Part shown: positions 1,064 through 24,469 of the stretch, piece after piece
How positions within the stretch are numbered: position 1 is the first letter of the stretch
Layout of the letters: each line of letters begins with the position of its first letter
IMG/VR virus record: IMGVR_UViG_3300028025_003683
Span: 1-54,342 of that record
DNA: 54,342 nt
Direction: 5' to 3' (one strand)
DNA from: a virus
The notes under the pieces: model-generated
What the model was told of the DNA's origin: nothing
Database searches by the model: none
The model's input: the letters and a program-made list of their open reading frames with translations, nothing else
Translations under genes and position numbers: made by a program

Positions 1064-2863
1064 TTGGGCATTTTTAGACGTGAAGCTGACAATCAGCCAC
1101 GCAACTCGAACAACGGCGGCGTTCGCGCTTCATCGCCAGGCGTTCGACCTATCCGCCCTCCTCAGCCAACTCAGTTTACTGACTCGTTTGGTATCGCTTC
1201 TGCTCAGCCAGTTGCGTACAACGCACCACGCGCCCTAACTGCAGCCGCCGTTCAAATCAAGATGAACGACAAAGGCGAGGCTGCTCTATTCAAGAGTCGC
1301 CGTCAGTCTGCATCTTCTGCGTGGCAGAAGGAAGCCTGGGAATACTACGACGCAATCGGTGAAGTGAAGTATGCCTTCAACCTAGTTGCGTCTGTTGTTT
1401 CTCGCATTCGCATTTACGCAGCTAGCGTTGACGACCCAGCCGAGGCACCAGTACCAATTGACAAGTCTACAATCATTGACGAAAAACTTGCTGCTGCTGC
1501 AGCCCGCGCACTTGACCGTCTTGACAGTGCATACGGAGGCCAGGCTGGTCTGCTCAAGGACGCTGCTCTAAACCTTCAGGTTACTGGCGAGTGCTACCTA
1601 GTTCAGGTTCCAGAGCGTATCGGTTCAGGACTTCCAGAAAGCTGGGACATCCGCTCAACTGACGAACTTCAGATTGACCAAAAAGGTAACTACATCATCA
1701 ACCCGCGCCGCGAGATTTCTTCAGGCGGCTCGATGATGTCTTCTGGAAACATCGAAGCGATTGCACTTCCATCTAGCGCATTCATTGGTCGCATTTGGAA
1801 GTCTCACCCGCGCTACTCACAGGAAGCCGACTCGAGCCTCCGCGGTCTACTAGACCTCTGCGCTGAGCTACTTCTACTCAACCGTACCTTCCGTGCTACT
1901 GCACGTTCTCGCCTCAACGCTGGTGCTCTTTACTTGCCAGATGGTTTGTCTGTTGCAGCTAGCCCAGAGGCTGATTACCCTTACGACGAAGACGGCGTCT
2001 ACAACGAGCAGTACAACCCAGAGGAAGCTGCTGACGACTTTGAGGACCAACTCATCGACGCGATGACAACTCCTATCAAGGACGAGGACTCGGCCTCTGC
2101 TGTTGTTCCACTTATCATTCGCGGACCTGCAGACCTTGGTGACAAGATTAAGCAGTTCAAGTTTGAGCGTTCATTCGACCCTGCACTTGCTCAGCGTGCG
2201 GACCGCGTGCTAGAGCGTATTATGCAGGGCCTAGACGTTCCTAAAGACATCGTGACGGGTCTTGCCAACGTTAAGTACTCAAACGCAACTCAGATTGATG
2301 AGAGCCTCTACAAGGCGCACATCGAGCCTCTGATGCTTCTTATTGCAGACGCCCTAACCATCGTTTACCTGCGCCCATACCTAATCTCGATTGGCTACAG
2401 CGAAAGCGAAGTCAACCGAATTGTTATTTGGTATGACCCAAGCCAGGTAACCACTCGCAACGACCGTGCTGCCGACGCAGACGCAGGATTTAACAACCTC
2501 GCTGTCTCATACGACACCTGGCGTCGTGCTCACGGATTCTCGGATAATGATGCTCCAAGCCCAATGGAGCTTGCCCTTCGACTAGTCATCACTAAGGGTG
2601 CCATTACTCCAGAACTAACCGAAGCCATGCTCGCTGCTGTTGCACCTGAGGTCATGGACAAGGTTAGAGGTATTGCTCAGGAGAACTCGGTTGCTCCTGT
2701 TCCACCAGAGATTCAGCAGCTACTCACCGGAGGCCAGCCAGCCGCTGCTCCGGGAGCACCTGCAGCGCCTGCCGCACCAGCAGAGGGAGCACCAGCACCA
2801 ACCCCCGCTCCGGCCCCAACTCCAGCCCCAGCGCCGCCAGGGCTAGCAGAACCTACAGCATAA
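1064..2863 (+). CDS. Portal protein
   Basis: 599 residues, starting at a TTG (1064) with an AGGGAG ribosome-binding site about 7 bases upstream. Portal proteins form the dodecameric ring at the unique capsid vertex through which DNA enters and leaves. The core pattern of actinophage portals is visible: WQKEAWEYYDAIGEVKYAFN near the N-terminus, the LVQVPER segment, the IRGPADLGDKIKQFKFERSF region, LERIMQGLDVPKDIVTGL, and a long C-terminal helix region with DPSQVTTRNDRAADADAGF. The last 50 or so residues are an Ala/Pro-rich tail (repeats of PAPTP) that is probably disordered. Position directly after terminase and before head genes supports the call. Confidence 0.9.
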   Translation: MGIFRREADNQPRNSNNGGVRASSPGVRPIRPPQPTQFTDSFGIASAQPVAYNAPRALTAAAVQIKMNDKGEAALFKSRRQSASSAWQKEAWEYYDAIGEVKYAFNLVASVVSRIRIYAASVDDPAEAPVPIDKSTIIDEKLAAAAARALDRLDSAYGGQAGLLKDAALNLQVTGECYLVQVPERIGSGLPESWDIRSTDELQIDQKGNYIINPRREISSGGSMMSSGNIEAIALPSSAFIGRIWKSHPRYSQEADSSLRGLLDLCAELLLLNRTFRATARSRLNAGALYLPDGLSVAASPEADYPYDEDGVYNEQYNPEEAADDFEDQLIDAMTTPIKDEDSASAVVPLIIRGPADLGDKIKQFKFERSFDPALAQRADRVLERIMQGLDVPKDIVTGLANVKYSNATQIDESLYKAHIEPLMLLIADALTIVYLRPYLISIGYSESEVNRIVIWYDPSQVTTRNDRAADADAGFNNLAVSYDTWRRAHGFSDNDAPSPMELALRLVITKGAITPELTEAMLAAVAPEVMDKVRGIAQENSVAPVPPEIQQLLTGGQPAAAPGAPAAPAAPAEGAPAPTPAPAPTPAPAPPGLAEPTA

Positions 2864-5333: not shown

Positions 5334-8300
5334 ATGTCTACCTCTTCGTTCAAACGCGAAAACAATGAGCCCACCCCAATCACTGCATCTCTCAGCTATA
5401 ACGATGGTGCTAATAAAGGCTTCTGGCGAATTCAGCCACGCGCTCTTGTAGGCAAGGACCGCGGAGAGTGGGTCGAGATGGGTGCGGAAATCCGCACTTG
5501 GATTAAGAACAATCTAGGACTTGCAGAGAGTATTATTGGACGCGCTCTAGGTTCGACTGGTAGCCCTAATGGTATCAGATTTAGACCTAACCCTGGGTAC
5601 GAAAGTCTAGGACTATCTCCAGATAAAATCTACGGTGTCGACACCAACCACGTAGAAAAACTAGAGGGCTCTCTTTCTGAAGAGTATCTAAAAAGTCAGG
5701 GCATTGAAGTCCCGAAGAACTCTACGGGGGATATGACAGCTGCTCAGATTGCTACAGTTCCTACGGTAGACCAGCTCGATAGTACCGACATCACTTCTGA
5801 CGACATTCGCCTTGCTAATGAAGGTATCGACTCTCCAGAGGGTCAAGAGATGTCTAAGTTCAAGGACTCTGAAGAAGGTCAGGCAATCGCCCGCCTCGAC
5901 GAAGAGACTGCCGCAACTGTTCAGCAGGGTGTGGCCCCTGGTGGCTCTTTCTCACCTGAGCAACTCGCAGCTGGCTACGGCTTTACCGAAACTGAAAAAG
6001 GTTCAGGTAAATACGAGACCAGCATTCCAGACGAGGGTGCTGGAACCGAAACTGTCTACACCGTTCCAACTACTCCAGACGCTAACGGCAAGTACAATGT
6101 ACTCCGAACCGAATGGACTGGACTAAATGACCGGAGCGGTATTCGTCAGGATTCAAACGACTACGATGCAGGCAGCTATGACTCTCTAGCTGACGCTTTC
6201 AAGGCTCACGCTCAGCAAAACTGGGACCTTGCCTCTGCCATGGATGCAGACGCGGCAGATAGTGCAAACCCGTTTAGTGCCAACCCTCCGAGGCTCAACC
6301 GAGACACCGACGTCCGCACTCCTGAAGGTGCTGCTCTTCTTGAAGGTTTCTTGCGTAAGCGTCTGGCTGGCTGGGATGCAAATTATGACGAATCCCCTGA
6401 AGTGTTTGACGGTCTTAAGGCTGTCTTAGATGACCCAAACCTTTCAGGTGACGAGCGCCTACAAGCTATTGCTGATGCTATTTCTGATGCTCGAATTGCC
6501 CGCAGGGGGAAGTTTACGGAGGGCCAGAAAACTCAAGAGGCTGTCTATGGTATTTATGGTATGCAGTCAAAGTTAGAGAAGGCCGGTTTTGAAACCGAGT
6601 TTACGCGTATTCAGAACGCTCAAAAAGCTCGTGAGCAAGAAATTATGGACCGCGCTGTGCGAGAAGCCATGGACATCACCTCGGAAAGCAAAGACATAAC
6701 CGTTGATGACCTTATCGATGAAGTAGCCACCCCAGAGCCTGGAGACGACATCCTAGATGGTCTTGAAATTCCTGAAGACGACCTTCTAGATGATGTCATT
6801 GACTCTGACCTTTCTGACCCAGAATTTGACCTAGTTCCTACTAGAAAAGAAAACACCTTTGCAAACGAACTTTTCGGTGATGAGTTTATTAGCAGAGAAG
6901 GCGTAACCTACAAAGTACTCGGAACAGAAGAAGACGAAGACGGCAATGTTTCAGTCACTGCCGTAGACCGCAATGGCGAGCGTCAGACTTTTAACGATGA
7001 CTCTTACCCAGTAATCACTAAGTTTGGCAAGCCTAAAGAGGCTCCTAGAGCAACTCCTGCCCCAGCGCCAGCCCCTAAAGCAGCGCCAAGACCGGCTACT
7101 CCAGCAGCTAGGCCAACGCCTGCGCCAGCGGCAACCCCGGTAGCTACTCCAGCAGCTAGGCCAACACCTACTCCTACTCCTGCTCCTGTAACTAGCATGC
7201 CACTGCCAGAAAACGCAACCAAGGTCAAAGATGTAAATGAACTTCAGTACGGTGACATCATTTACAACAAGGATGGTGTAGAGATGGGTAAGTTCCTTAG
7301 CATCCAATCAAAGGGTGAAGGTAACGCTGTAACCATCAAGGTAAGTAAAAACGGTACAGTACTCCCTGTCAGGTTTGACTTTATCGTTCCGGCATATAGA
7401 ACTCGCGAAGGGGAAGCGGCTACTCCTACCCCGAGCGCAACTCCACGCCGAGCAAAGCCTGCTACCCCGCCTAAAACCCCTGAGACAGCAGTTGCCGGTC
7501 AGAAGAAGGCTCAGGACCTAGTTGATGGCGACTACATCCTAGACAGCGAAGGTAGCCCGTTCGGCTCTGGTGCAGGTCTAGTGAATAGCGTATCTGTGGC
7601 TAATGGCCGCGTTACCGTAAACTACACCGATTCAGATGGTCAAGTACGAACTAAGCTATTCCGCGAAGGCAAAGACGTTAGTCTTGACCTTGGAGATTCC
7701 GCTGAGCCTAAGGACATTGTTTCCAAGTCTGAATCTGGAGGCGGCAAAAAAGCAAGCAAAGCCGACCTCGACAAGATTGCAGAGCTCGATGCTCGCGACG
7801 CCGCGGATAACATTCCGGATGAAGACCTTCGCGACGAACTATTCGACATGATTAACCGCATTGCCGAAGGCGACAACCCGTCTGCTAAAGAAGCTCGCGA
7901 CCTAATCAAGCGTATTGAAGATGCTTACGGCCCGGATGAAGATGAAACTCCTGAAGATGGAGAGGGTGGCGGTCTAGACGAGGAAGAGATTCCTCTAGAA
8001 GAGACTCCGGAGTTTGCTGACCGTCGTACCGATGACGGCCAAAACAAGTCAAACAAACCTGTCCGCTCGGTAGACGCAATGCGTAAAACTAAGCTCAGGA
8101 ACCTTCTTGATAAGTTTGGAAAGCGTCACTACGTTGTCGGACCTGATGGCAAGAGAGTCAACCCTAGCGACCCATCGCAAACCCTCAGCCAGACTGCTGC
8201 CGACTACCCAGACGGCCACTTCATCGACAATCCTGCCGATGAACTACACAACGCATACATGACCCACCGCGCAGACATTGACGGTGGAAACACCAAGCTG

Positions 8301-9728
8301 GAGATGGGTGTTATTCGTACCACCAACAACCAGTACAAGGTGTTCATGCGATTTACAGACAAGAACACCGGTGAAGTTAGGACCCTCTACTCGCACGACC
8401 CTCGTGACACCTACATGGCAATTCACGGTAAGAAAAACGGTCTAGAAAACTTCTATGCCTACTTTAGTGGTAAAGCTGCTCCTCTACAGAATAAAGAATC
8501 TCGTGAGTACAAAAAGTACTTTGGCGAAGGACGCACGTACCAGGACCGACTAAAATACTGGCGCGACAAGTTCAACAAGAACTTCTCTGAAGACGACCTA
8601 AGTGATGAAGAGCTAGAGGTTCTCGAAAACCGCTTTGACGGCGATATCGATGCCTACAACGAGGCAAAGAGCTTGGAAGACTTCCGTATTCTAAGTCTAG
8701 AAGAGCGCGTCAAGCTAACTGCAAATGGTGAAGCCGAACGTCTAGAAGAGGTTGTAGAGAAGAACCTAGGGCGCGTGCTTCGCAAAAAGGTTGCCAGCTT
8801 CTACGAGGCATTCGAAAGCGACGACCGAGTGTCGGCACGTCAGCGTTACAACGCCATGCTATCGCTTTTGCCTGACAACGCAGAATCTCGCGCTACGGTT
8901 CGTAGAGTAATTAGTGCTGAGATTAAGCGTCGAATCAATGCTTCAGGTGTTGACGGCGAAGAAAGAACCGCAGCCCTACAGCGTATGTCTGGTTTCGTAA
9001 CAGCGTTCTCGAACTTTGCTAACAAGCAGTTCTCGCTCGACAATGAGCTAGCAATCCCTTACGCGAATGGCGAAGGTATTAAGGTTGTAAAGCCTGGTGA
9101 CCTAGTCATTGCTCAGGACAACATGGGCCGTGACGTTGTCGCTCGAGTCTACAAACTACTCAAGGGTAGTGGTAAAACTCAAAACGATGACTTTGTTCGT
9201 CTAATTGTTCGTGACTCTGACGGTAATCTGCGTTCTCTTCGTGCCGACATTGCCTCGAAGAGCCTACGCGCCATTCCTGCTGGAGAGACTCCAGAAATTG
9301 GCGAGTGGGAAGGCTGGGACCGCTTGATTCCTATGACCGAGCAGCGCCTCGGCGCGGAAGCCGCTGCCCGTCGTGCAAAGGCTCTTGGTATTGCATACAA
9401 GGGTCCGGACGATGATGACCCTCCAGGCGGTAGCGGTGGCGACGGAGATGGTCCTCCTCCTCCACCTCCAGGCGGTGGTGGCGACGCGGTGGCTGAACCA
9501 GAACCAGAGCCTGAAGTTGTAGGTAAGCCTGCTGCTGCTCTACAGGGCGGCGACGAGGTGTTTGGTGCTGATGGTCTACCTCTAGGTACAGTTACAAAGG
9601 TTGTTTTCCGTGAAGTAAACGGACAGCCAATGGCCCTAGTGCAGTATCGCACTCCAGATGGTAAAACTGGCCGAGTAGCTTACTCGCCTGACCAGCTGGT
9701 GGGTGGCTCGGATAGCCCAAAAGCGTAA
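5334..9728 (+). CDS. Giant multidomain virion-region protein with SH3-like barrels and Pro/Ala linkers (zero-frame product)
   Basis: 1464 residues from the ATG at 5334, preceded by AGAAGGA. Residues 28-60 hold a compact segment (FWRIQPRALVGKDRGEWVEMG). Residues 300-500 are helical, then strongly acidic. Residues about 510-560 (DEFISREGVTYKVLG), 630-690 (LQYGDIIYNKDGVEMGKF), 725-785 (LVDGDYILDSEG), 1250-1320 (VKPGDLVIAQDNMGRDVVARV) and the last 65 residues (LQGGDEVFGADGLPLGTV) all share a hydrophobic-GD-xxhh start followed by short strands. They look like repeated SH3/KOW-type small barrels. These are separated by Pro/Ala/Thr linkers (570-620) and a Gly/Pro tract near 1405. A conserved-looking helical block occupies about 915-1200. 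No enzyme motif was seen. The end of the gene carries a -1 frameshift signal leading into a metallopeptidase domain. A head-interior or ejected protein is inferred. Confidence 0.8.
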   Translation: MSTSSFKRENNEPTPITASLSYNDGANKGFWRIQPRALVGKDRGEWVEMGAEIRTWIKNNLGLAESIIGRALGSTGSPNGIRFRPNPGYESLGLSPDKIYGVDTNHVEKLEGSLSEEYLKSQGIEVPKNSTGDMTAAQIATVPTVDQLDSTDITSDDIRLANEGIDSPEGQEMSKFKDSEEGQAIARLDEETAATVQQGVAPGGSFSPEQLAAGYGFTETEKGSGKYETSIPDEGAGTETVYTVPTTPDANGKYNVLRTEWTGLNDRSGIRQDSNDYDAGSYDSLADAFKAHAQQNWDLASAMDADAADSANPFSANPPRLNRDTDVRTPEGAALLEGFLRKRLAGWDANYDESPEVFDGLKAVLDDPNLSGDERLQAIADAISDARIARRGKFTEGQKTQEAVYGIYGMQSKLEKAGFETEFTRIQNAQKAREQEIMDRAVREAMDITSESKDITVDDLIDEVATPEPGDDILDGLEIPEDDLLDDVIDSDLSDPEFDLVPTRKENTFANELFGDEFISREGVTYKVLGTEEDEDGNVSVTAVDRNGERQTFNDDSYPVITKFGKPKEAPRATPAPAPAPKAAPRPATPAARPTPAPAATPVATPAARPTPTPTPAPVTSMPLPENATKVKDVNELQYGDIIYNKDGVEMGKFLSIQSKGEGNAVTIKVSKNGTVLPVRFDFIVPAYRTREGEAATPTPSATPRRAKPATPPKTPETAVAGQKKAQDLVDGDYILDSEGSPFGSGAGLVNSVSVANGRVTVNYTDSDGQVRTKLFREGKDVSLDLGDSAEPKDIVSKSESGGGKKASKADLDKIAELDARDAADNIPDEDLRDELFDMINRIAEGDNPSAKEARDLIKRIEDAYGPDEDETPEDGEGGGLDEEEIPLEETPEFADRRTDDGQNKSNKPVRSVDAMRKTKLRNLLDKFGKRHYVVGPDGKRVNPSDPSQTLSQTAADYPDGHFIDNPADELHNAYMTHRADIDGGNTKLEMGVIRTTNNQYKVFMRFTDKNTGEVRTLYSHDPRDTYMAIHGKKNGLENFYAYFSGKAAPLQNKESREYKKYFGEGRTYQDRLKYWRDKFNKNFSEDDLSDEELEVLENRFDGDIDAYNEAKSLEDFRILSLEERVKLTANGEAERLEEVVEKNLGRVLRKKVASFYEAFESDDRVSARQRYNAMLSLLPDNAESRATVRRVISAEIKRRINASGVDGEERTAALQRMSGFVTAFSNFANKQFSLDNELAIPYANGEGIKVVKPGDLVIAQDNMGRDVVARVYKLLKGSGKTQNDDFVRLIVRDSDGNLRSLRADIASKSLRAIPAGETPEIGEWEGWDRLIPMTEQRLGAEAAARRAKALGIAYKGPDDDDPPGGSGGDGDGPPPPPPGGGGDAVAEPEPEPEVVGKPAAALQGGDEVFGADGLPLGTVTKVVFREVNGQPMALVQYRTPDGKTGRVAYSPDQLVGGSDSPKA

Positions 9729-9760
9729 CCTCCGAGTCGACAACTAAACCGACCTCGGGG
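9716..9760 (+). promoter_or_regulatory. Programmed -1 ribosomal frameshift signal (CCCAAAA plus stem-loop)
   Basis: The heptamer C CCA AAA (9716-9722) fits X XXY YYZ in the reading frame of the upstream gene, one codon before its TAA. After a 7-base spacer, CTCCGAG (9730-9736) pairs with CTCGGGG (9754-9760), a 7-bp stem with one G-U pair. Beyond a bulged C at 9753, TCG (9737-9739) can pair with CGA (9750-9752), leaving a 10-base loop. A -1 slip enters the open frame that encodes the metallopeptidase domain, read from 9722. Confidence 0.8.
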
Positions 9761-11197
9761 GGTAGAGCAGAATCTATCACCAGTGAATCATCAACGGCAG
9801 TGAACAACACCCCACTTGATGTCAACTGGGACGACATAGATTTTGATGATGATGGCACAGCCGGTGGCGTAGCCGACATTCCTACCCCTGCTGAATTAGA
9901 CGCTGCTCGAAAAGCTAGAAAAGCTCAAGCTGCTGGCAATATTGCTGGGATTGGCCCGCTGACTGCTGGTCGCAAGGTTGATGATTCACTTCTAGGCATA
10001 TTCTTTAGCAGAGATGCTGACACACTAGATAGATTAGAATCGGAATCCTTAGAGGCTAGAGGTCGACTTGAAGACGCCATTAAAAAAGGCTACAGTGACT
10101 CGATAATTAAGGCTTTCCGTCAGTCATACGTTGAGGCGCTAAGCAGACAAGTTGGATTCCAACGTTTCCTAGAGCGAGTTTATCGCTCGGCCGGTAAGTT
10201 TGACTTTAGCTTATCTGACGACTCACTCCTGAGCCCGGAGGAGATTAAAAAAGTTAATGCTGCGCCAGTACGAGACAGCAGTGGCACTGCTATAGGTGGG
10301 TATGACGCTAAATACAACTTAGGTCGAGGGATTGCTAGCTCTACGCTGCCTAAGCTCCGTAAACGGGTAGCAGTTGCAGACAGGATAAATAGTAAACTTA
10401 CTATCCCAGATGGTTGGAGTCTGGAGTCTGCATCGTCGGTTCTCGATGACATCCAAAACTCTAAGAGCTCTAGGACTTCTAAAAATGCTAGAATGCAGGC
10501 TAGACTTGCAGAAGCTAAAAACATGTTCTACGGAACTATCCTGCGTAAACAGGGTTCTCCAGCTATTGTTAGGTTCCAGCACAGTAAAGACACCATAGAT
10601 GCTACCCCGGCTGAAATGAAAAAAACCGTAGAAGCAATTAAGGCAGTAGAAGATGCTGGAATTAGTTTAGAAGCTCTTAGGACTACAGCACTGTTCAATG
10701 GCAGGCAGTCAGCAGAGGCGGGTAAGAAAGACCCCGATGCCGTAGCTCCATTCACTATTGACGTTGGTGACCATGCAAAGAGTGCTGGGTTTAAGGACAC
10801 TTCTACAATTGCTTACGCCTCTAGCAACGGACTCGTAAAACTAAAGTTGTCAAAAACTAGAATGTATGATTCAGAAGATTTTAGAAAGAGTCAGGCAGGG
10901 CACCATGCTGTAGAAGCTACTAGTGCATTAGATTCTATATTTAACACGCTAGTTCACGAAATTGGCCACATTGTGCAATACCGCTCTTTTACTTACTCAG
11001 AATTTGACGAATATAAGTCTTCCGGCAGACGCGGTAAACTGAACATAGTTGACGGTCAGGACAGGGTTGCTGGGAGATATAATGAAGAAAACGGTTCCGA
11101 GCACTGGGCCGAGGCCTTCGCTGAGTTTGTGATACGAAACAAGATATCTCCTAGAATGAGACAAATTCTTGTAACTAGAGGTATTCTCCTAAAGTAG
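9722..11197 (+). CDS. Zinc metallopeptidase (HExxH gluzincin-like) domain, reached by -1 frameshift
   Basis: The frame is open from 9716. Entered by slippage it adds 491 residues to the preceding protein. The first possible independent start is a GTG at 9800 (465 residues), with no Shine-Dalgarno before it, so fusion is preferred. The stretch before 9800 is Ser/Thr-rich (SVTSESTTKPTSGG), like a linker. After an acidic patch and a helical region comes TLVHEIGHIVQYRS: H386, E387 and H390 (counted from 9800) are the zinc ligands and catalytic Glu of a HExxH zincin. About 45-50 residues later GSEHWAEAFAEF supplies E434 or E438 as the likely third ligand, as in gluzincins. It would cleave peptides, either a virion component or a host target. 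Substrate and timing are unknown. The 60-residue gene downstream starts 13 bases after the stop. Confidence 0.78.
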   Translation, partial: SVTSESTTKPTSGGRAESITSESSTAVNNTPLDVNWDDIDFDDDGTAGGVADIPTPAELDAARKARKAQAAGNIAGIGPLTAGRKVDDSLLGIFFSRDADTLDRLESESLEARGRLEDAIKKGYSDSIIKAFRQSYVEALSRQVGFQRFLERVYRSAGKFDFSLSDDSLLSPEEIKKVNAAPVRDSSGTAIGGYDAKYNLGRGIASSTLPKLRKRVAVADRINSKLTIPDGWSLESASSVLDDIQNSKSSRTSKNARMQARLAEAKNMFYGTILRKQGSPAIVRFQHSKDTIDATPAEMKKTVEAIKAVEDAGISLEALRTTALFNGRQSAEAGKKDPDAVAPFTIDVGDHAKSAGFKDTSTIAYASSNGLVKLKLSKTRMYDSEDFRKSQAGHHAVEATSALDSIFNTLVHEIGHIVQYRSFTYSEFDEYKSSGRRGKLNIVDGQDRVAGRYNEENGSEHWAEAFAEFVIRNKISPRMRQILVTRGILLK

Positions 11198-11839: not shown

Positions 11840-14629
11840 ATGGTGGAGTACGCTGGCCGTAAAGGCAACTTGAAGCTGCTTGTCGATAGAGACAGTGCAG
11901 TAGTTGTCGACACATCACTCAACTTAATCATTGGTGTTGGTGATGCAAGTGCCGCGTTCGCTGCCTACAACTGGGAAGCACCGTCTGGCTCAATTGAACC
12001 AAACATCCTAGAACTTGCATCTAGCGCACTCACCACTCTCGACATCAACGTCATCACCGCCTCTGGCCGTATGTATACAATTCCAGACGGCGTTAAATCA
12101 GAGGCTCAGAAGGCTCTGAACTGGCGTAAAGAAGAGAAGCGCGGTGGCACTCCCGTTGGGTTGAACACTGCTCGCACTCTTGCTAAGGGCGGCCAGATTG
12201 GTATCGAAAAAGTTCGCCACATTGCAAAGTATTTCCCTCGTCACGAAGTTGACAAAAAGGGCAAAGGCTGGGAGCCAGGCGAAGACAACTTCCCTAGCAA
12301 CGGCCGCATTGCCTGGGCCCTGTGGGGTGGCGACGCCGCTCGCCGCTGGGCGTCTGCAATCGTAGAGCGCGAGAACAAGAAGGCAGTTACTGCTGGCGGT
12401 TATGCCCTTCCAAGCTATCTCGAGAACTCTGACGCTTACAGAACCAGAGACTCTTACACTCCTGACGTAAATGCCTTCAAGGACGCTTTTGAACTTGACG
12501 TGCACTCTGGTCCAGAGTTCTTAGCACGCGTACGCCTCGACGGCTCTGGCCTTGACCGCCTCTACAAAGTTGAGCCGGATGGTTCAGTCTACGTTTGGGA
12601 CAACATGGGCTGGGACAACCTAGGCCACGTCAATGGTGACATTTGGACTTACGACAAAGAACTAGATAACGAGGATGACGACTGCGTCAAAGACCACGTT
12701 CTTATCGACCCTAGCTCTGCAATGATTATCTCGGCTCTCATGCAAGAAGACCCGTACCGAAAAGTGTCTATCGAAGACATCGACCCTGAAGAGGCTTACC
12801 TTGTCTCGGGTGGACTACCTGGCGAAGACTGGGCAATGGCGGACTACGCTATGACCGCAGCCGGTGAAGGTGCTTCAGATGGAAACATCAAACCAGCCGC
12901 TGTAAACCAGGACGGTAACTACACCCCTGAAGAGCGTTCTGCACTTGCTAAGGCTCAGACCCGTGACGCAACCGGAAAGTTTGCAGCAGCAGGCTCTCGA
13001 GTTGTAGTTGGTAACGACACCACAAACGGTCGAGGACTTATCACCGGACTAGACAAAGCTACTGGTGCAGCTACTGTTCAGCTAGACAATGGAAACACTG
13101 TAACTGTTCCTTCTAAGTTGACTGCACCTGAAGAAGGCTTCCAGGACACAATGCCAGCAGCTAATCCGACTGCTCCAGGCAAGCCTCTAGATGTTGAAGG
13201 AATTCTTGGCGAGCCTAAGAGTCCTGTTAACCGACCTAACGTTCAGCTTCCAGGCACCCTTCCTCCAATGTCAGCTGCTGACCTTAAGAGCGTAGTCAAC
13301 GACTGGTCTGGGTATGTTGCATCTCAGCGTGCAGGTTTCAAACCACTTGATGGACAAGCTCCAGACTCGGGTAGCAAAATTGCTACTGTTAAAGACGGCA
13401 AAATTGTCACCCAGAAAATGAGCCCGACCGCAGCCGACAAAGCAAACGCTGGAAAGCCAGTAATTAACCCTGCTGCTCGGACGGCAAAAGCCGAGGCCCG
13501 CAGGGATGGTGCTGCTTCGGGAAGAGCGCCAGTAATACCCGCCGCTCCAACCCCGAAGCCAGCCGTACCAGCAGCCGAAGCTAAAAAAGATAAAGCAACA
13601 GCGGGTAGAGCTCCAGTTGTCACAGCTGAACAGAGAAAAGACAAGGCCGCCGCGGGTAGAGCCCCCGCACCTAAGCCCGGGGGCAAAAACATTATTCAGC
13701 AGGCCGGAGAAAACTTCGCAAAGACCTGGGACAAAGTCAACCGTGAAGGTATATTCGCTCCACCTCCAATTGTTAAAAAAGCTGTAGGCGACATTGCTAA
13801 GAAATTTACTGGCACTGCTCCGGGGCAGAAAAAATCTAGCGGTGGAACATCTCCGGACGCTGCAGAGCGTCGTCAGCAGGACAAGGACAAAGTTGTATCG
13901 GCTAACCGAGACAGTCTTCGTCAGGTAAGAAATGCCGACCGCAAGGCTGAAGGAACCAGCAAGACCGGAAACTTTGACGACGAAGGTCGATACGTTATTC
14001 AAAAGGGCGACAGCCTATGGTCTATCGCTGAGAAGAACAAGCCAGCCGATAAGTCAACTGCTGAATACTGGAACGAAGTTATGAAGGCTAACCCTAAGGA
14101 CAGATTCAAGTCCGGCAATCCTAGCCTCATCTACTCGGGTGAAAAGGTAGACCTTCCTGGAGTGACTGGTCGACCGGCTCCAAAGAAGCCAGACAACCAA
14201 GGCTCGCTACGTAATGCTAGAAATGCAGACCGAAAGGCCGAGACTGCCAAGGCTGCAGCCGAGGCAAAGACTAAGGCCGATGCAACTAAATCTGAAGCGC
14301 GTAGAGACAAGGCTACAGCAGGCAGAGCTCCGGCCTCAAAGCCAGCATCGCAGGGTGGTCCAACCCCTAGAGCAGCAGACAAAGCTAACGAGGGCAAGCC
14401 AAGGATTAACACTGGCGCTCAAACTGCAAAAGCTGAAGCCAGACGAGACAAAGCCACGGCAGGTAGACCATCAGCACCTAAGCCATCAGGAACTCAAAAA
14501 CCTAGCCCTAGAGCAGCTGATAAGGCAAACGAAGGGAAGCCAGTAATCAACACTGGCGCTCAGACAGCAAAGACTGAAGCCAAGAGAGACAGAACCCGTG
14601 GCTCTTCAGGAGCTCGTAAGCGCAAATAA
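11840..14629 (+). CDS. LysM-containing repeat protein with phage KxGKGWxPGEDxFPSxGRIAWxxWGG domain
   Basis: 929 residues from ATG 11840 with AGGAGA upstream. Residues about 73-175 hold a conserved actinophage virion segment: DGVKSEAQKALNWRKEEKRG, then HIAKYFPRHEVDKKGKGW, then GRIAWALWGGDAARRWA. Around 375-430 is RDATGKFAAAGSRVVVG plus a small barrel (TVQLDNGNTVTVP). Residues about 715-775 form a LysM domain (YVIQKGDSLWSIAEKN, then VMKANPK), which in other proteins binds peptidoglycan. Surrounding and following it are basic repeats: AADKAN-GKP-IN-A-TAKAEARRDKATAGR occurs three times with variation, plus shorter DKATAGRAP copies. The C-terminus is very basic (SSGARKRK) and may touch nucleic acid. 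A minor virion protein is inferred. Confidence 0.75.
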   Translation: MVEYAGRKGNLKLLVDRDSAVVVDTSLNLIIGVGDASAAFAAYNWEAPSGSIEPNILELASSALTTLDINVITASGRMYTIPDGVKSEAQKALNWRKEEKRGGTPVGLNTARTLAKGGQIGIEKVRHIAKYFPRHEVDKKGKGWEPGEDNFPSNGRIAWALWGGDAARRWASAIVERENKKAVTAGGYALPSYLENSDAYRTRDSYTPDVNAFKDAFELDVHSGPEFLARVRLDGSGLDRLYKVEPDGSVYVWDNMGWDNLGHVNGDIWTYDKELDNEDDDCVKDHVLIDPSSAMIISALMQEDPYRKVSIEDIDPEEAYLVSGGLPGEDWAMADYAMTAAGEGASDGNIKPAAVNQDGNYTPEERSALAKAQTRDATGKFAAAGSRVVVGNDTTNGRGLITGLDKATGAATVQLDNGNTVTVPSKLTAPEEGFQDTMPAANPTAPGKPLDVEGILGEPKSPVNRPNVQLPGTLPPMSAADLKSVVNDWSGYVASQRAGFKPLDGQAPDSGSKIATVKDGKIVTQKMSPTAADKANAGKPVINPAARTAKAEARRDGAASGRAPVIPAAPTPKPAVPAAEAKKDKATAGRAPVVTAEQRKDKAAAGRAPAPKPGGKNIIQQAGENFAKTWDKVNREGIFAPPPIVKKAVGDIAKKFTGTAPGQKKSSGGTSPDAAERRQQDKDKVVSANRDSLRQVRNADRKAEGTSKTGNFDDEGRYVIQKGDSLWSIAEKNKPADKSTAEYWNEVMKANPKDRFKSGNPSLIYSGEKVDLPGVTGRPAPKKPDNQGSLRNARNADRKAETAKAAAEAKTKADATKSEARRDKATAGRAPASKPASQGGPTPRAADKANEGKPRINTGAQTAKAEARRDKATAGRPSAPKPSGTQKPSPRAADKANEGKPVINTGAQTAKTEAKRDRTRGSSGARKRK

Positions 14630-14683: not shown

Positions 14684-17600
14684 ATGGCAGAAGCTCCTAA
14701 GGTTACCCCTCAGGCTGAGAGTGGCGCTCCGCTCACTCCGAAGACGTCAGACGTACCTCCTCTATATTTTGCTGTCGTTTCGCCTGACGACCCTCGCGCC
14801 GTCATGGACGTTATTGCTATGGTTCCAGCGTCTGCAACCAGCACCGAGCCTTCAGCCTTCCGTCGTGAAGACAAGCAGTGGGTTCCTGACGAGCAGGTTC
14901 TCAAGGACCTCAAGTCAGCGACTCCTCCACCTGTAGTTGCGTTGGACAGCAGCGTTCTTGATGGAGTTCTAAAGCAGGTTGACGGTATCGACCCTGTTGT
15001 TGCGAGCATTAAGCACGCCGATGCCATCGTTGCATCTATGTGGTCACCTAAAGCTCCATCAGCGGGAGACTTCGCTCTTGAAGAAGACGTCTTCTCACTA
15101 CTCTCTGATGAAGAATACGAAATGCTATCTGGCGAAGGTCTCCTAGAGCACTTCTCTATTCAGGCTGCTGGTGGACTAGACCGCAACCGCGGCAACGCAG
15201 AAGAACTTCGCCGCTACTGGACTCGTGGTAAGGGTGCTGCCAAGATTCGCTGGGGCACTCCTGGCGACTGGACCCGTTGTGTTCGTCAGCTTTCAAAGTA
15301 CATGGGCCCACGCGCGAAGGGGTACTGCCAGCTCCGCCACAAGGACGCGACTGGTGTCTACACCGGCAGCCGACTAAACCCAGGGAGAAACAAATCTTTC
15401 TCTAACGACGAGTTCGCTCAGTTGGTAATCGACACTGCTGTTCTAAACGCTCGTGCCGCTGAAGTTCGTAACCGCTTTGCTCTTACAGCTGCTGCTGGTA
15501 TTCCTACCGTTGGAGACACTACAGCGCAGAATGTAAAACCAACCATGGAGTTTGGCTCTGAGTTCTCAATTCCGCTAGTTCTACCTGAAGACCTCGAGTC
15601 TGGTGACAAGCGCAAGTTTAAGCCAGAATCTGTGGAAATTAGAGAACTTCCTCTACCACTACTCTGGCAGATTAAAACTGCTGACGGCCACCAGGGCTCT
15701 GTAGTTGTTGGACGTATTGACTTTATGGAACGCATCAGCGGTGGCATTGGCAACGCTCGCGGTGTATTTGATACCGGAGAGTATGGCAAGGAAGCAGAGC
15801 GCCTAGTACGTAACGGATTTATCCGTGGAGTATCTGCTGACTTGGACCAGTTCGAAGCTAAGGAACAAAAGCTTGGAGTTGATGTACTACAAGACGAGGA
15901 TGACGAAGTTGAGAAAAAGAGTCTCCTAATTAACCGTGCACGAATTATGGCTGTAACAATCGTACCTAAGCCTGCTTTTCAAGAGTGTGTAATCATGCTC
16001 GTTGATGGTACTACCCCTTCCGAGGAGGAAGAAATGAACACTGAAGATGGTCTATACGAGGAGACAGTGGAGCCTACTGCCGAGCAAACCAGCCTCGTCG
16101 CATCTGGATTCCTAAGTCACCCAATTCCTGTAACCCCTCCCCGTGATTGGTTCTTGAATCCTGACTTGAAGAAGCCTACCCCGCTAACTATTGACGACTC
16201 GGGACGAGTCTACGGTCACATTGCTGCATGGCACGTGAACCACATTGGTATGCCTCGCGCAACCAAGCCACCTCGCTCGCGTAGCAAGTATGCCTACTTC
16301 CACACTGGCGTCTGCAGAACTGCAGAAGGTGTCGATGTTCCAGTAGGTCAGCTAACTCTTGCTGGTGGACACGCTCCACTACAGGCTGATGCAAACGCTG
16401 CATCTCGCCACTACGATGACACTGCATCTGCAATCGCTGACGTTCACGCTGGCGAAGACTCTTACGGTATCTGGGTAGCTGGTTCGCTACGTCCAGAGGC
16501 AACCGAAACGCAGATTCGTGCTCTACGTGCATCTTCTCCTTCGGGCGACTGGCGTCCAATCGGCGGCTCGCTTGAGCTTGTTGCAGTTTGCCAGGTAAAC
16601 GTTCCAGGCTTCCCTATCGCTCGTGCGATGGTTGCTGGTGGGCAGGTTATGGCTCTTGTTGCAGCTGGTGCTCACGAGATGGCATTGCTTCGCAGTGACA
16701 TCTCGGGTCAGCTTTCGGCTAAGGCACGACTACTCTCTGAGCTGAACTCAAGCGTGGACACCTTGGACATTCGTGGACGCGTTGCTCGCGCACGCGTTGA
16801 TGCAGAGTTTGGCTACATTTCTCGTGACGAGCGCGAAAAGCTTGCTGGCAAGGGCTTCGCTCTTCCAGATGGCTCATACCCAATCCGCAACGTCGAAGAC
16901 CTAAAGAACGCTATTCAGGCTTACGGCCGCTCGAAAGAGTCAGACCGCGCTAAGGTTCGCAAGCACATTGCAAAGCGTGCCAACGCTCTCAAGGTTCGCC
17001 ACATGGTTCCTGAAGAGTGGAAGAGTCTTTCTAGCCTAGAAGCAGCCACTGCGCTCTCGACCATGCGCGACCGAATTGCAGCCCTAACTGCAGCAGCTCC
17101 GGTTGAAGAAATTTCTGACGAGGACCTAAAGCTTCTCGAAGAGTCAAAAACCGAAGCCGATAAAGAGCGTCAAGACGCCATCGACCTAGTTGAGGCTCAG
17201 AAGAGCGGCGAGAGTGTTGTTGACACCTACGGACCTGATGGCCGTTTGAAGTACACTCCAAAGACCCAGCCTCGTGATGCTCGCGGTAAGTTCCGTAAAG
17301 TTCTTGCCCGTCTAAAGCAGGACCTCGGTGTTGCTGGTCTACAGCGAGCACTTGTCAAAGTACAGACAGCCGAAGACATGGAGTTTGCTGGTAACTACGC
17401 TGGAGCAGCCGCAGCCGCTGGTGACCTTATCAACACCATCGACCGCCTCGACACAGGTGCGCTAGACGCAACTAAACTTGAAAACGTTCGTAACACTGCC
17501 GCAGACCTAGGAAGGGTAATTGCAAACTTGCCACTACCTTTCACTAACCAGGCTCAGAAGGTGCGTTACAGCGATTTACCACCGGCACTAAAGAATCTTA

Positions 17601-17755
17601 TTGATGACATGGTTACCCGCGTGGAAAGCAAGATTGGAAAGAAGGATGCAGACATTGCGACTGCCAACCTTCGTTCCTTTAAAGCCGGTGCAGACGTATA
17701 TTCTCAGTCGGAGATTTCCTCTGAGATGACTACCCTGCTCCGACTCCTTACCTAA
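14684..17755 (+). CDS. Capsid maturation protease, fused multidomain form
   Basis: 1023 residues from ATG 14684, preceded by AGAAGG. Residues about 163-225 (NAEELRRYWTRGKGAAKIRWG, then CVRQLSKYMG and KGYCQLRH) are a segment common in actinophage head proteins. Residues about 315-400 (IRELPLPLLWQIKTADGHQG, then GFIRGVSADLD) match prohead-protease-like proteins. A second conserved block at about 480-660 includes VTPPRDWFLNPDL, GRVYGHIAAWHVNHIG, YAYFHTGVCRTAEG, HYDDTASAIADVHAGED and SGDWRPIGGSLELVAVCQVN; this is the pattern I know from actinophage capsid maturation proteases. A FALPDGSYPIRNVEDLKNAI module follows near 730. The C-terminal 160 residues are helical and could scaffold assembly. The product would cleave the capsid protein's N-terminal region. 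An internal start at 16034 may give a second product. Confidence 0.82.
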   Translation: MAEAPKVTPQAESGAPLTPKTSDVPPLYFAVVSPDDPRAVMDVIAMVPASATSTEPSAFRREDKQWVPDEQVLKDLKSATPPPVVALDSSVLDGVLKQVDGIDPVVASIKHADAIVASMWSPKAPSAGDFALEEDVFSLLSDEEYEMLSGEGLLEHFSIQAAGGLDRNRGNAEELRRYWTRGKGAAKIRWGTPGDWTRCVRQLSKYMGPRAKGYCQLRHKDATGVYTGSRLNPGRNKSFSNDEFAQLVIDTAVLNARAAEVRNRFALTAAAGIPTVGDTTAQNVKPTMEFGSEFSIPLVLPEDLESGDKRKFKPESVEIRELPLPLLWQIKTADGHQGSVVVGRIDFMERISGGIGNARGVFDTGEYGKEAERLVRNGFIRGVSADLDQFEAKEQKLGVDVLQDEDDEVEKKSLLINRARIMAVTIVPKPAFQECVIMLVDGTTPSEEEEMNTEDGLYEETVEPTAEQTSLVASGFLSHPIPVTPPRDWFLNPDLKKPTPLTIDDSGRVYGHIAAWHVNHIGMPRATKPPRSRSKYAYFHTGVCRTAEGVDVPVGQLTLAGGHAPLQADANAASRHYDDTASAIADVHAGEDSYGIWVAGSLRPEATETQIRALRASSPSGDWRPIGGSLELVAVCQVNVPGFPIARAMVAGGQVMALVAAGAHEMALLRSDISGQLSAKARLLSELNSSVDTLDIRGRVARARVDAEFGYISRDEREKLAGKGFALPDGSYPIRNVEDLKNAIQAYGRSKESDRAKVRKHIAKRANALKVRHMVPEEWKSLSSLEAATALSTMRDRIAALTAAAPVEEISDEDLKLLEESKTEADKERQDAIDLVEAQKSGESVVDTYGPDGRLKYTPKTQPRDARGKFRKVLARLKQDLGVAGLQRALVKVQTAEDMEFAGNYAGAAAAAGDLINTIDRLDTGALDATKLENVRNTAADLGRVIANLPLPFTNQAQKVRYSDLPPALKNLIDDMVTRVESKIGKKDADIATANLRSFKAGADVYSQSEISSEMTTLLRLLT
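16022..16036 (+). promoter_or_regulatory. Strong internal Shine-Dalgarno and in-frame ATG inside the capsid protease gene
   Basis: AGGAGG (16023-16028) sits 5 bases before ATG 16034, which is in the same frame as the 14684 gene. Initiation here would give a 573-residue C-terminal protein (16034-17755) starting MNTEDGLYEETVEP, just ahead of the second conserved block. The AGGAGG could be just the codons of a Glu-rich linker, so this is a candidate. Confidence 0.5.
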
Positions 17756-17885: not shown

Positions 17886-19793
17886 GTGGACCACATCAAA
17901 TCGCAGCTAGATAACCTGGCTGAGCTTAGTGACGAACAAGTCACCGAGCTTCAGAGCAGCATTATCAGCCAATTTGAGTCGGTCGAGGGTGAAGACCCTA
18001 CTCCTGAGACAGTTGATGTTATGACATCTCTCGCAGATAGTCTTGACACTGTTCGCGGTGAGCTTTCACGTCGCGAGGTACAAGCTGAAGAGCTTGCTGC
18101 CCGCGCAGCTGAGGCGACCGCACGTGTTAAGGGTGCAGAAGATGTTCAAGAAGACGGAGAGGCTATGGCCGACTATACAGAAGAGGATGCTCCAATGGAG
18201 GATGCTCCAGTAGAAGAAGTTCCTACAGAAGAAGTTCCTGCAGAGGAAGTTCCTATGGAAGAGGTTGGCGAAACCCCTGACGAGGAAGACGAAGACAAGT
18301 TGAAGGCTTATTCAGCCGAAAGCTTTGCTTCAGAAACTGAGACAACATCAACTACCGACGGAGAAGGCTCAGAGCTTTCAACCGAAACCGAGGTTTCTGC
18401 AGACGCAGAGCTTTCAGCCGAAGAGACCACCGAAGCAGCTGTTGAAGCTGTCGAGGGCTCAGAGGCATCAACCCAAGAAACATCATCTATTGCTCCAGAA
18501 GAGCAGGAAGAGCAGGCACCCGTGACCGCCGCAGCAGAACAGCCTTTCGAGGCTCCAGCTGACCGTCAGCCTGTAGTTCAGGTAGTCGAGACCGCTCCAG
18601 TGGCAATCACTGCGGGCGCTGACATCCCTGGCTACACAGCCGGCAGCACCATCAACGACATGAGCGAAGTAGCTTCAGCAATGGAGAAGCGCATTCACTC
18701 ACTACGTCGTGTCAACGGTGGAGATGGAGAGCAGCACATCGTTGCATCTATCACCACTCAGTACGGTGAAAACCGCACTCTATCAACCGACGCAGAGTCG
18801 AACTCAGCTAAGATTAACGCTGTTGTTGGCCAGGAGGCACTTGTTGCTTCTGGTGGTCACGCTGCACCTTTCGAGGTTAAGTACGACATCTTCGGTCTTG
18901 GTTCAACCACCAACCGTCCAGTCCGTGACTCGCTTCCTAAGTTCCAGGCTGACCGCGGCGGTATCCGCTTCGTAACTCCACCTAGCTTTGCTTCAGGTGA
19001 CTACGCAAATGCTGTTGGCATTTGGACCGCGGCAACCGACACCTTGCCATACAGCAACACCAAGACCAGCTTGACTGTGACCGCTGCTGCTGAGCAGACC
19101 GTGTCAACTGACGCTGTAACCTTGCAGCTACAGTTCGGTAACCTAATGACCCGTGCGTACCCAGAGCTAATTGCCCGTCACAACGAGCTAGCCCTAGTAC
19201 AGCACGCGCGTGAGGCAGAGCAGAACCTTCTAACCAAGATTGGTGACGCTTCAACCGCAGTAACCACCACCTCGACCATCGGTTTCGGCCGTGACTTCTT
19301 GGTACAGGTTCGTCGTGCAGCAGTTGCTTACCGCTCACGTCACCGCATTGACCCTAAGACTCAGCTAAAGGCGATTATTCCTGCATGGGTATATGACGCT
19401 ATGGCTGCCGACCTCACCTTGGCTATGCCTGGTGACGGCACCCTTGCTGTTTCAGAGTCAGAAATCAACGGCTACCTAGCACTAAGCAACGTAACCCTGA
19501 CCCCATCGCCAGACCTAACCGTCTTCGGTGCTCAGGGTGCGACTGCATTGTTGGAGTTCCCAGACAGCTTTGTCTGGTACCTATTCGCAGAGGGCTCGTT
19601 CTTGTTCCTCGACGGTGGTACTTTGGACCTAGGAATTATCCGCGACAGCACCCTAGTCGGCACCAACGACTACAAGATGTTTGTTGAGACCTTCGAGAAC
19701 GTTGCCTTCGTTGGCATCGAGGCTTTGAAGATTACTTCAACCATCACCGTAGCTGGTACCGCTGCAGCACTTGTAAGCGCTGTAGACTACTAA
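17886..19793 (+). CDS. Major capsid protein with N-terminal acidic scaffold-like domain
   Basis: 635 residues from a GTG at 17886 with an excellent AAGGAGG. The N-terminal 80 residues are helical (ELSDEQVTELQSSIISQF, ELSRREVQAEELAARAAEA). Residues 97-127 are an acidic repeat of EDAP and EEVP units, and an acidic Ser/Thr/Glu stretch runs to about 210; together they look like a delta or scaffold domain removed at maturation. From about 240 the HK97-type capsid fold begins: ITAGADIPGYTAGSTINDM, GGIRFVTPPSF, HNELALVQHAREAEQNLL, IGFGRDFLVQVRRAAVAYR, FPDSFVWYLFAEGSFLFLDG. It assembles the icosahedral shell. Codon choice is strongly biased, as expected for a highly expressed gene. It follows the protease gene and is followed by a GC-rich hairpin. 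Confidence 0.92.
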   Translation: MDHIKSQLDNLAELSDEQVTELQSSIISQFESVEGEDPTPETVDVMTSLADSLDTVRGELSRREVQAEELAARAAEATARVKGAEDVQEDGEAMADYTEEDAPMEDAPVEEVPTEEVPAEEVPMEEVGETPDEEDEDKLKAYSAESFASETETTSTTDGEGSELSTETEVSADAELSAEETTEAAVEAVEGSEASTQETSSIAPEEQEEQAPVTAAAEQPFEAPADRQPVVQVVETAPVAITAGADIPGYTAGSTINDMSEVASAMEKRIHSLRRVNGGDGEQHIVASITTQYGENRTLSTDAESNSAKINAVVGQEALVASGGHAAPFEVKYDIFGLGSTTNRPVRDSLPKFQADRGGIRFVTPPSFASGDYANAVGIWTAATDTLPYSNTKTSLTVTAAAEQTVSTDAVTLQLQFGNLMTRAYPELIARHNELALVQHAREAEQNLLTKIGDASTAVTTTSTIGFGRDFLVQVRRAAVAYRSRHRIDPKTQLKAIIPAWVYDAMAADLTLAMPGDGTLAVSESEINGYLALSNVTLTPSPDLTVFGAQGATALLEFPDSFVWYLFAEGSFLFLDGGTLDLGIIRDSTLVGTNDYKMFVETFENVAFVGIEALKITSTITVAGTAAALVSAVDY

Positions 19794-24072: not shown

Positions 24073-24106
24073 TAAGACGAATATCTAAAAGAAAGAACTA
24101 AATAAG

Positions 24107-24445
24107 ATGGCAAGATTTAAAGATTTTGGCAAGGGCAAGGAAGACAACGCGTCAGCCGAGCCAATCAGTTTTACACTTCACGGAGAGAACTTTGAGTGTC
24201 TCCCGCGCCTTCAGGGTAAAGTTTTGCTCGAGTTTGTTGAGCTAGCTAACTCTGAAAACGCCTCAGACTCGGCAAAGGTTACCCGTACTTTCTTCAAGAA
24301 GGTATTGCCTGCAGAAAGTTACGCACGATTTGATGCGCTTCTAGAGGACGAGAAGAAAATTGTTTCTGTGGAAACTTTGGGAGAAATCATTGGCTGGCTC
24401 ATCGAGGAGTACAGTGACCGCCCAAATCCGCAGCCAGAGGCTTAG
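24107..24445 (+). CDS. Tail assembly chaperone (gpG-like, zero-frame product)
   Basis: 112 residues from ATG 24107. It has PISFTLHGENFECLPRLQGK, VLLEFVELANSEN, FFKKVLPAESYARFDALLED, VSVETLGEIIGWLIEEYSDR, the pattern of siphovirus tail assembly chaperones that hold the tape measure protein during tail building. Such genes usually give a short form and a frameshifted long form. Here the heptamer C CCA AAT (24421-24427) lies 16 bases before the TAG, and the tape measure gene follows after the second chaperone frame. Assignment is strong on sequence, position and frameshift together. Confidence 0.87.
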   Translation: MARFKDFGKGKEDNASAEPISFTLHGENFECLPRLQGKVLLEFVELANSENASDSAKVTRTFFKKVLPAESYARFDALLEDEKKIVSVETLGEIIGWLIEEYSDRPNPQPEA

Positions 24446-24469
24446 CAACCTGGGCGGTTGACCTCTGGC
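24421..24469 (+). promoter_or_regulatory. Programmed -1 ribosomal frameshift signal in the tail chaperone genes
   Basis: Heptamer C CCA AAT (24421-24427) fits X XXY YYZ in frame. After 5 bases, GCCAGAGG (24433-24440) pairs perfectly with CCTCTGGC (24462-24469). Inside, CAACC (24446-24450) pairs with GGTTG (24456-24460) around TGGGC. The -1 frame is open and reads SAARGLATWAVDLWPYVHGK into the second chaperone frame. Confidence 0.87.

What the first reader, a model, noticed from the sequence alone, without database searches (positions are those of the whole stretch)
9716..9800. A second programmed -1 frameshift fuses a 1464-residue virion-region protein to a zinc metallopeptidase
Seen: C CCA AAA sits in frame one codon before the TAA of the giant gene, with a 7-base spacer and a 7-bp stem extended by 3 bp past a bulge. 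The -1 frame is open across the junction and reads as a Ser/Thr-rich linker into a HExxH domain. The only independent start (GTG 9800) has no ribosome-binding site. Known: X XXY YYZ plus a stem-loop 5-9 bases on is the standard -1 signal; in tailed phages the well-known case is the tail chaperone. Inference: a minority of this protein carries a protease domain of 491 residues, total about 1954.
Basis: partly seen in the sequence, partly recalled or inferred. Interest (0 to 1): 0.88.

Follow-up and report, generated by a model that had tools for sequence, protein, structure and literature searches.

The report
Frameshift adds protease to head protein
In a large family of actinobacterial phages, many from freshwater, ribosomes slip back one base at the end of a giant head-region gene and fuse a zinc-protease or anti-defence "payload" to its protein; relatives encode the same fusion without slipping, so it looks like a controlled way to arm some copies of a protein probably carried in the virion.

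Summary
C CCA AAA lies in frame at 9716-9722, one codon before the TAA of the 1464-aa gene, 6 nt ahead of an 8+3-bp stem-loop. The -1 frame is open from the heptamer to 11197. Comparison turns one site into a family trait. In 32 distinct junctions from IMG/VR relatives, the giant gene between portal and capsid maturation protease ends with CCCAAAA or AAAAAAA 0-1 codon before its stop, then a stable but sequence-divergent stem (mean z -2.5; controls -0.6; p 8e-10). None of 198 other -1 overlaps in these loci has such a site. Third-position changes dominate in the -1 frame before any possible start codon, so that stretch is translated. Most decisive, 10 relatives encode the giant protein and an HExxH domain in one uninterrupted ORF, and the two modes alternate on the portal tree (at least 5 changes). 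Payloads differ: one zincin here, two ArdC-N + MPTase-PolyVal units, zincin with PARP-like and kinase-like regions, or exonuclease. This matches phage 'polyvalent proteins'; the paper that defines them does not mention frameshifting. Packaging in the virion, injection and the protease target remain inferred. New variant of a known kind.

The parts
5334..9728 (+). 0-frame giant gene, 1464 aa, mostly low-complexity with small beta (SH3-like) units; in the head gene block between portal and capsid maturation protease
   Evidence: syntenic giant genes in Microbacterium, Arthrobacter and Gordonia phages and IMG/VR loci
5334..6023 (+). conserved N-terminal header domain (GANKGFWRIQPRD..GQWIEMG), shared by all giants with an intact N-terminus in this group
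   Evidence: alignment of 31 loci; AF2 model with a small beta domain at about residues 50-110; no confident PDB match
9716..9722 (+). slippery heptamer C CCA AAA
9726..9728 (+). 0-frame stop codon TAA, one codon after the heptamer
9729..9761 (+). stimulatory stem-loop: 8 bp, 1-nt bulge, 3 bp, 10-nt loop, starting 6 nt after the heptamer
9716..11197 (+). -1 frame ORF (translated from 9722 after the slip, 491 residues): Ser/Thr-rich linker, helical region and C-terminal zincin
9800..9802 (+). only early candidate start in the -1 frame (GTG), without a ribosome-binding site; not the preferred reading
10955..10969 (+). HEIGH zinc-binding motif (ORF residues 414-418); invariant E462 (11099-11101) is the candidate third ligand
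   Evidence: H414, E415, H418, Y455, E462, E466 invariant in 13 sequences
1064..2863 (+). portal protein gene (context)
   Evidence: phrog_776 portal, E 1.6e-103
14684..17755 (+). capsid maturation protease / MuF-type head protein gene (context)
17886..19793 (+). major capsid protein gene (context)
   Evidence: synteny with annotated major capsid genes; conserved alignment

Best explanation
The site is a genuine programmed -1 ribosomal frameshift. Most ribosomes stop at TAA 9726 and make the 1464-residue head-block protein. Some slip back by one base on C CCA AAA, helped by the stem-loop at 9729-9761, and add a 491-residue tail ending in a zincin metallopeptidase (1954 residues in all). Shown here: heptamer, structure, conservation in 32 distinct junctions, coding constraint in the -1 frame, and existence of the same fusion without frameshift in relatives. 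Inferred: the giant protein is a polyvalent-type protein packaged in the head and injected with the DNA; frameshifting arms only a fraction of the copies with the payload; the payload cleaves a host (defence or housekeeping) protein or releases parts of its own carrier early in infection.
For: Heptamer, frame and stem in the window. 32 distinct junctions with CCCAAAA (most) or AAAAAAA 0-1 codon before the stop and a stem just after; mean z -2.46 against -0.61 for 200 control gene ends, Mann-Whitney p 7.5e-10. Same-position stems with unrelated sequences: CCCCC-N5-GGGGG in L006-type, GGGCUG...CAGCCC around different inner stems in L027/L032/L036. 0 of 198 other -1 overlaps carry these heptamers near the stop. 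Before the first possible start in the -1 frame, substitutions fall 120/77/210 on codon positions 1/2/3; L131 vs L092 1/0/8, L176 vs L196 2/0/9. Of 32 -1 ORFs, 28 carry HExxH. Ten complete giants carry the HExxH domain in frame (L018, L022, L028, L030, L031, L034, L134, L138, L170, L177), the L018/L030 domain being homologous to the -1 domains. PRF and in-frame states need at least 5 changes on the portal tree. Zincin: invariant HExxH...E and fold match Z 10.9 to M34, 9.8 to PPEP zincins. L006-type payload: ArdcN E 1e-49 and MPTase-PolyVal E 5e-48, two copies each.
Against: No protein data: fusion product, ratio and virion location are unmeasured. In-frame relatives make every copy armed, and no slippery site conserved near their junction was found, so a strict ratio is not essential in all lineages. 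The window's zincin lacks a curated Pfam match (ATLF 14.2 bits against a cut-off of 27.4) and its catalysis is untested. CCCAAAA is less slippery in E. coli than heptamers ending AAG (general knowledge; PMC5009743 lists C CCA AAG), so efficiency in the host may be low. The codon-position counts pool pairs that share sequences.
Confidence: 0.9

Rival explanations
1. No frameshift: the protease frame is a separate gene started at GTG 9800 (or by reinitiation after the TAA), and the heptamer and stem are incidental.
For: A GTG lies at codon 28 of the -1 frame; the stop is close by, so coupling is imaginable.
Against: No ribosome-binding site; in relatives the first ATG/GTG/TTG of the -1 frame is as far as codon 101-180 (L137 101, L163 108, L196 104, L036 108, L065 180), yet the frame stays open from the heptamer and shows third-position bias before any start. 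Heptamer and stem are kept in all junctions.
Confidence: 0.04
2. A sequencing or assembly indel has broken one long ORF; the true gene is in frame as in L018 and L030.
For: In-frame relatives exist; the window contig is a single metagenome assembly and the exact junction was not found in another contig.
Against: The same site with heptamer, stop and stem recurs in 32 distinct junctions from many independent metagenomes; random indels would not put CCCAAAA or AAAAAAA before the stop every time.
Confidence: 0.02
3. The -1 product arises by transcriptional slippage rather than ribosomal frameshifting.
For: A minority of the 32 junctions use A7 runs, on which RNA polymerase can stutter.
Against: Most junctions, the window included, use CCCAAAA with only four A, too short for efficient slippage (general knowledge); the stems at ribosome distance fit ribosomal frameshifting.
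Confidence: 0.03
4. The frameshift is real, but the fused zincin serves virion maturation (cleaving head or scaffold proteins, or its own carrier) inside the producing cell and is not an injected effector.
For: The gene lies in the head block next to the maturation protease; zincin-like maturation proteases are proposed in jumbo phages (PMC7824862); Iyer et al. propose self-cleavage by MPTase domains (PMC5512222).
Against: The payload varies between relatives (two ArdC-N/MPTase units, PARP- and kinase-like regions, exonuclease), and giants at the same place in isolated phages carry helicase, ADP-ribosyltransferase or kinase-like domains. That is typical of effectors, not of a conserved maturation step; the phage also has a dedicated maturation protease.
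Confidence: 0.25

Closest known systems
Phage polyvalent proteins (Iyer et al. 2017, PMC5512222)
   Same: Giant multidomain proteins of portal-terminase phages; relatives of this one carry ArdC-N and MPTase-PolyVal (significant Pfam matches), a PARP-family ADP-ribosyltransferase (weak match), UvrD helicase and exonuclease domains.
   Different: There all domains are described within one ORF and the text has no word 'frameshift'; here the effector module is appended by -1 frameshifting in most relatives. The window's own zincin does not match the MPTase-PolyVal model.
Frameshift-derived C-terminal extensions of phage coat and tail proteins (T3/T7 gene 10, A2, A118, PSA; reviewed in PMC5009743)
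   Same: Slippage near the 3' end of a virion-block gene adds an optional C-terminal domain to a fraction of the copies; relatives can use frameshift or in-frame fusion interchangeably.
   Different: Those extensions are mostly Ig-like decoration domains on major coat or tail proteins; here they are 265-1004-residue modules, mostly enzymatic, on a giant non-major protein.
Tail assembly chaperones G/GT of lambda and relatives
   Same: Conserved -1 frameshift with strict heptamer; this phage also seems to have one (CCCAAAT at 24421).
   Different: Different gene, place and product; the chaperones are not in the virion and carry no protease.
M34/PPEP-type zincin metallopeptidases and 'ATLF' domain phage proteins
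   Same: HExxH...E zincin fold; VIA Z 10.9 (M34) and 9.8 (PPEP); best viral fold matches are two phage proteins with that domain name.
   Different: Sequence identity 9-20%, below the Pfam cut-off; substrate unknown; found only as a fusion to a phage head-block protein.

Membership tests
[quoted passage not shown]
   9716-9722 C CCA AAA; conserved in 32 junctions
Programmed -1 ribosomal frameshift (X XXY YYZ class) | RNA structure about 5-9 nt downstream | tested here: met
   Stem 6 nt after the heptamer; family z-scores below controls, p 7.5e-10; predicted only, not probed
Programmed -1 ribosomal frameshift (X XXY YYZ class) | -1 frame open across the junction and under coding constraint before any start codon | tested here: met
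   (120/77/210 differences at positions 1/2/3)
Programmed -1 ribosomal frameshift (X XXY YYZ class) | Trans-frame protein made in a definite proportion | not testable with these tools
   No proteomics or reporter data
Phage polyvalent protein | Several effector or conflict domains joined in one large polypeptide of a portal-terminase phage | tested here: inconclusive
   Met for relatives (ArdcN and MPTase-PolyVal twice in L006; UvrD in L022/L024/L031; RNase_T in L155); the window itself shows only one recognisable enzymatic domain, the zincin
Phage polyvalent protein | Recognised polyvalent domain (e.g. PF18818 MPTase-PolyVal, PF08401 ArdcN) in the window protein | tested here: not met
   No such match
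Phage polyvalent protein | Packaged in the capsid and injected with DNA | not testable with these tools
   Only gene position (head block) supports it
Zincin metallopeptidase (M34/PPEP-like) | HExxH with a downstream Glu ligand, conserved | tested here: met
Zincin metallopeptidase (M34/PPEP-like) | Zincin fold | tested here: met
   AF2 model (mean pLDDT 69; HExxH helix about 92-94); VIA Z 10.9 and 9.8; profile match to an M34 zincin E 5.8e-5. Plain Foldseek against PDB gave nothing significant
Pfam ATLF (PF07737) | Score above the curated cut-off | tested here: not met
   14.2 bits against 27.4
Tail assembly chaperone G/GT | Lies directly upstream of the tape measure gene | tested here: not met
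   The gene lies between portal and capsid maturation protease; the chaperone-like pair is at 24089-24813
Ig-like frameshift extension | Ig-like domain on a major coat or tail protein | tested here: not met
   Extension is a helical region plus zincin; gene is not the major capsid or tail gene

The most novel reading that the evidence does not exclude
Dose-controlled payload loading: many unarmed copies of a giant head protein act as carriers, and programmed frameshifting arms a set fraction with interchangeable enzymes (zincin, ArdC/MPTase, ADP-ribosyltransferase, kinase, exonuclease) that enter the cell with the DNA to disable its defences; the slip site is a conserved docking point at which payloads are exchanged.
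Probability: 0.45. Interest if true: 0.85.

Novelty: new variant of a known kind. Interest (0 to 1): 0.74.

Why it matters
Frameshifting in tailed phages is known mainly from tail chaperones and from small decoration domains. Here one conserved slip site, spread over a large family of actinobacterial phages, attaches enzymatic modules to a giant head-block protein, and different modules hang on the same site. If the proteins are packaged, it would be a translational control of how many effector molecules a virion carries, and the in-frame relatives give a natural comparison. Gene callers will have split these proteins in most genomes, so protease and anti-restriction parts now look like separate unassigned ORFs without start sites.

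Tried and rejected
Close-relative searches with the window's -1 ORF or giant protein found nothing in IMG/VR, and tblastn of the -1 ORF found nothing in phages; the way in was the neighbouring maturation protease, major capsid and portal genes. DNA search in phages: no match. Foldseek against PDB with the whole -1 ORF model gave only noise; the VIA second look gave the zincin match. The N-terminal header domain gave no confident fold match. PADLOC: no match; NCBIfam and PHROGs: none for the -1 ORF. The exact window junction was not found in another contig, so no second assembly of this very phage covers it. No slippery site conserved near the junction was found in the in-frame relatives that would make a shorter product. 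The capsid maturation protease is split in overlapping frames in several relatives, but mostly without heptamers near the stop and with ordinary start sites, so I do not claim frameshifting there. L021/L033 overlap by -1 without a slippery site and with an ATG just after the stop: ordinary gene overlap.
Full report
1. What the sequence shows. ORF 5334-9728 (1464 aa) ends ...AGC CCA AAA GCG TAA. The heptamer C CCA AAA (9716-9722) is in the 0 frame, one codon before the stop. The -1 frame has a TAG immediately before the heptamer and is then open to 11197 (493 codons counted from 9716; 491 residues after the slip; 1954 in the fusion). The predicted stem-loop begins 6 nt after the heptamer: 9729-9736 with 9754-9761 (8 bp, one G-U), a 1-nt bulge, then 3 bp and a 10-nt loop. 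The only early start in the -1 frame, GTG 9800, has no ribosome-binding site; the next ATG is codon 259.

2. Where it lies. The window is an unannotated 54-kb virus record. The gene sits in the head block: portal at 1064-2863 (phrog_776, E 1.6e-103) and capsid maturation protease / MuF-type protein at 14684-17755, major capsid gene at 17886-19793 by synteny. The closest annotated phages are actinobacterial: Microbacterium phages Pumpernickel, Cece, Big4 and Zooman, the lake phage DSL-LC01, Arthrobacter phage Mimi and Gordonia phage Sixama. All have a giant gene at the same position, with C-terminal domains that differ: kinase-like in Pumpernickel (PI3_PI4_kinase, E 7e-5, below its cut-off), annotated 'DNA helicase' in Mimi, annotated 'ADP-ribosyltransferase' in Sixama.

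3. Comparative test. Conserved neighbours brought in 192 IMG/VR loci. I searched all loci for ORFs that overlap the end of an upstream ORF in the -1 frame. At the giant gene there are 32 distinct junctions (no two identical over 61 nt), and all have CCCAAAA (most) or AAAAAAA with 0 or 1 codon between it and the stop. As that list was conditioned on the heptamer, I also counted without the condition. Of 27 deduplicated -1 overlaps labelled giant by marker, 24 have the site; the 3 without are two with a short downstream ORF (128-134 codons) and one probable indel inside a giant (L192). Of 206 other -1 overlaps, 8 have it, and all 8 proved by position to be giant genes the marker search missed (L006, L007, L010, L065, L088, L145, L160, L166). 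That leaves 0 of 198. The best stem after the heptamer is more stable than shuffles (mean z -2.46, 84% under -1) and than 200 control gene ends (mean z -0.61), p 7.5e-10. Stem sequences differ widely while pairing is kept: CCCCC-N5-GGGGG in the L006 group, GGGCUG...CAGCCC enclosing different inner stems in L027, L032 and L036, GGGCC...GGCCC in L008/L016. I did not run a formal covariation test, because the regions are not alignable across the family.

4. The -1 frame is translated before any start codon. In pairs of relatives, over codons between the heptamer and the first possible ATG/GTG/TTG, differences fall 120/77/210 on positions 1/2/3 of the -1 frame; in close pairs 1/0/8 (L131-L092) and 2/0/9 (L176-L196). 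Some pairs share a sequence, so the pooled numbers are not independent. In several loci the first start codon is more than 100 codons downstream. Independent initiation cannot account for this.

5. The same fusion without frameshift. Ten complete giants have the HExxH domain in frame. In L018/L019 and L030/L138 it is the same kind of domain as in the -1 ORFs (blastp of L030 to L016 E 5e-23, L018 to L012 E 2e-12; the -1 ORFs of L014 and the window match each other at E 6e-15). On a portal tree of 45 rows (34 different) the two states need at least 5 changes, 3 forced by well-supported branches. Fusion is thus the conserved outcome and frameshifting one of two ways to reach it.

6. The payload. 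The window's tail is a Ser/Thr-rich linker, a helical region and a zincin with invariant H414, E415, H418, Y455, E462 and E466. The AlphaFold2 model has mean pLDDT 69, with about 92-94 around the HExxH helix. The VIA second look aligns residues 199-489 to M34 zincins (Z 10.9) and 271-493 to PPEP zincins (Z 9.8); other zincins follow at 7-8. Plain Foldseek against PDB gave no significant match; against viral models its two best hits are phage proteins of the same domain type (E 0.02 and 0.06). Profile search agrees (E 5.8e-5), but the Pfam ATLF score is under the cut-off, so I call it a zincin of this clan, not a member of that family. Of the 32 -1 ORFs, 28 carry HExxH; L065 and L139 lack it, L145 and L155 are cut by contig ends. 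L006-type payloads are two tandem ArdcN + MPTase-PolyVal units (E 1e-49 and 5e-48). L036 adds a PARP-like match (E 3.5e-4, under the cut-off) and a kinase-like stretch judged by eye; L155 has RNase_T (E 6e-13).

7. How it most likely works. Shown: signal, conservation, coding of the -1 frame, equivalence with in-frame fusions, variable payload. Inferred from polyvalent proteins (PMC5512222) and from gene position: the giant protein is packaged through its conserved N-terminal part (header domain) and long flexible body, and enters the host with the DNA; the frameshift leaves most copies unarmed and arms some. Two reasons for limiting it are plausible and not separated here: stoichiometry in the head, or limiting protease activity in the producing cell. 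The in-frame relatives argue that a fixed ratio is not universally needed.

8. Novelty. Frameshift extensions of phage virion proteins are known (T3/T7 gene 10, A2, A118, PSA; PMC5009743), as is indifference between frameshift and in-frame decoding for Ig-like domains. Polyvalent proteins are known, but the defining paper does not mention frameshifting, nor do the jumbo-phage survey or the DSL-LC01 paper; full-text searches found no report of the combination. The library holds open-licence papers only, so an earlier report elsewhere cannot be excluded. I rate it a new variant of a known kind.

Noticed in passing
window 24089-24813: Tail-chaperone-like pair upstream of the presumed tape measure gene: ORFs 24089-24445 and 24418-24813 overlap by -1 with CCCAAAT at 24421, 15 nt before the stop.
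   Followed up: partly
L205, L207, L208, L209: The string CCCAAAAGCNTAGCCCCC also occurs at the 3' end of unrelated genes of about 300-325 codons in four other IMG/VR contigs; the -1 extension starts PKSVAP and reads as a BIG2/Ig-like domain or a 45-aa tail, like the known Ig-extension frameshifts.
   Followed up: partly
L022 154-7917, L024 3-7760, L031 19-7671: Giants of about 2,550-2,590 aa with a UvrD-type helicase in the middle and an HExxH domain near the C-terminus, all in one ORF.
   Followed up: partly
L003 15962-22669 (Pumpernickel gp82): Giant gene at the same position ends in a kinase-like domain (PI3_PI4_kinase, E 7e-5, below the Pfam cut-off).
   Followed up: no
L192 4915-7763: The giant gene is split by a -1 overlap without slippery site, while the closely related L191 and L193 are intact; probably an indel.
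   Followed up: no
window 11840-14629: 929-aa protein between giant gene and maturation protease with a LysM-like stretch (E 4.5e-4, just under the cut-off) and an endolysin-family match (phrog_380, E 9e-7); possibly a cell-wall enzyme in the head block.
   Followed up: no
L008 8357-12952 and L016 6369-10967: The maturation-protease reading frame is interrupted by a single in-frame stop, with both halves in the same frame.
   Followed up: no
L119: A separate 5-kb IMG/VR contig carries a portal protein 100% identical to the window's, so the phage or a very close one was assembled from another sample; it is too short to reach the frameshift site.
   Followed up: no
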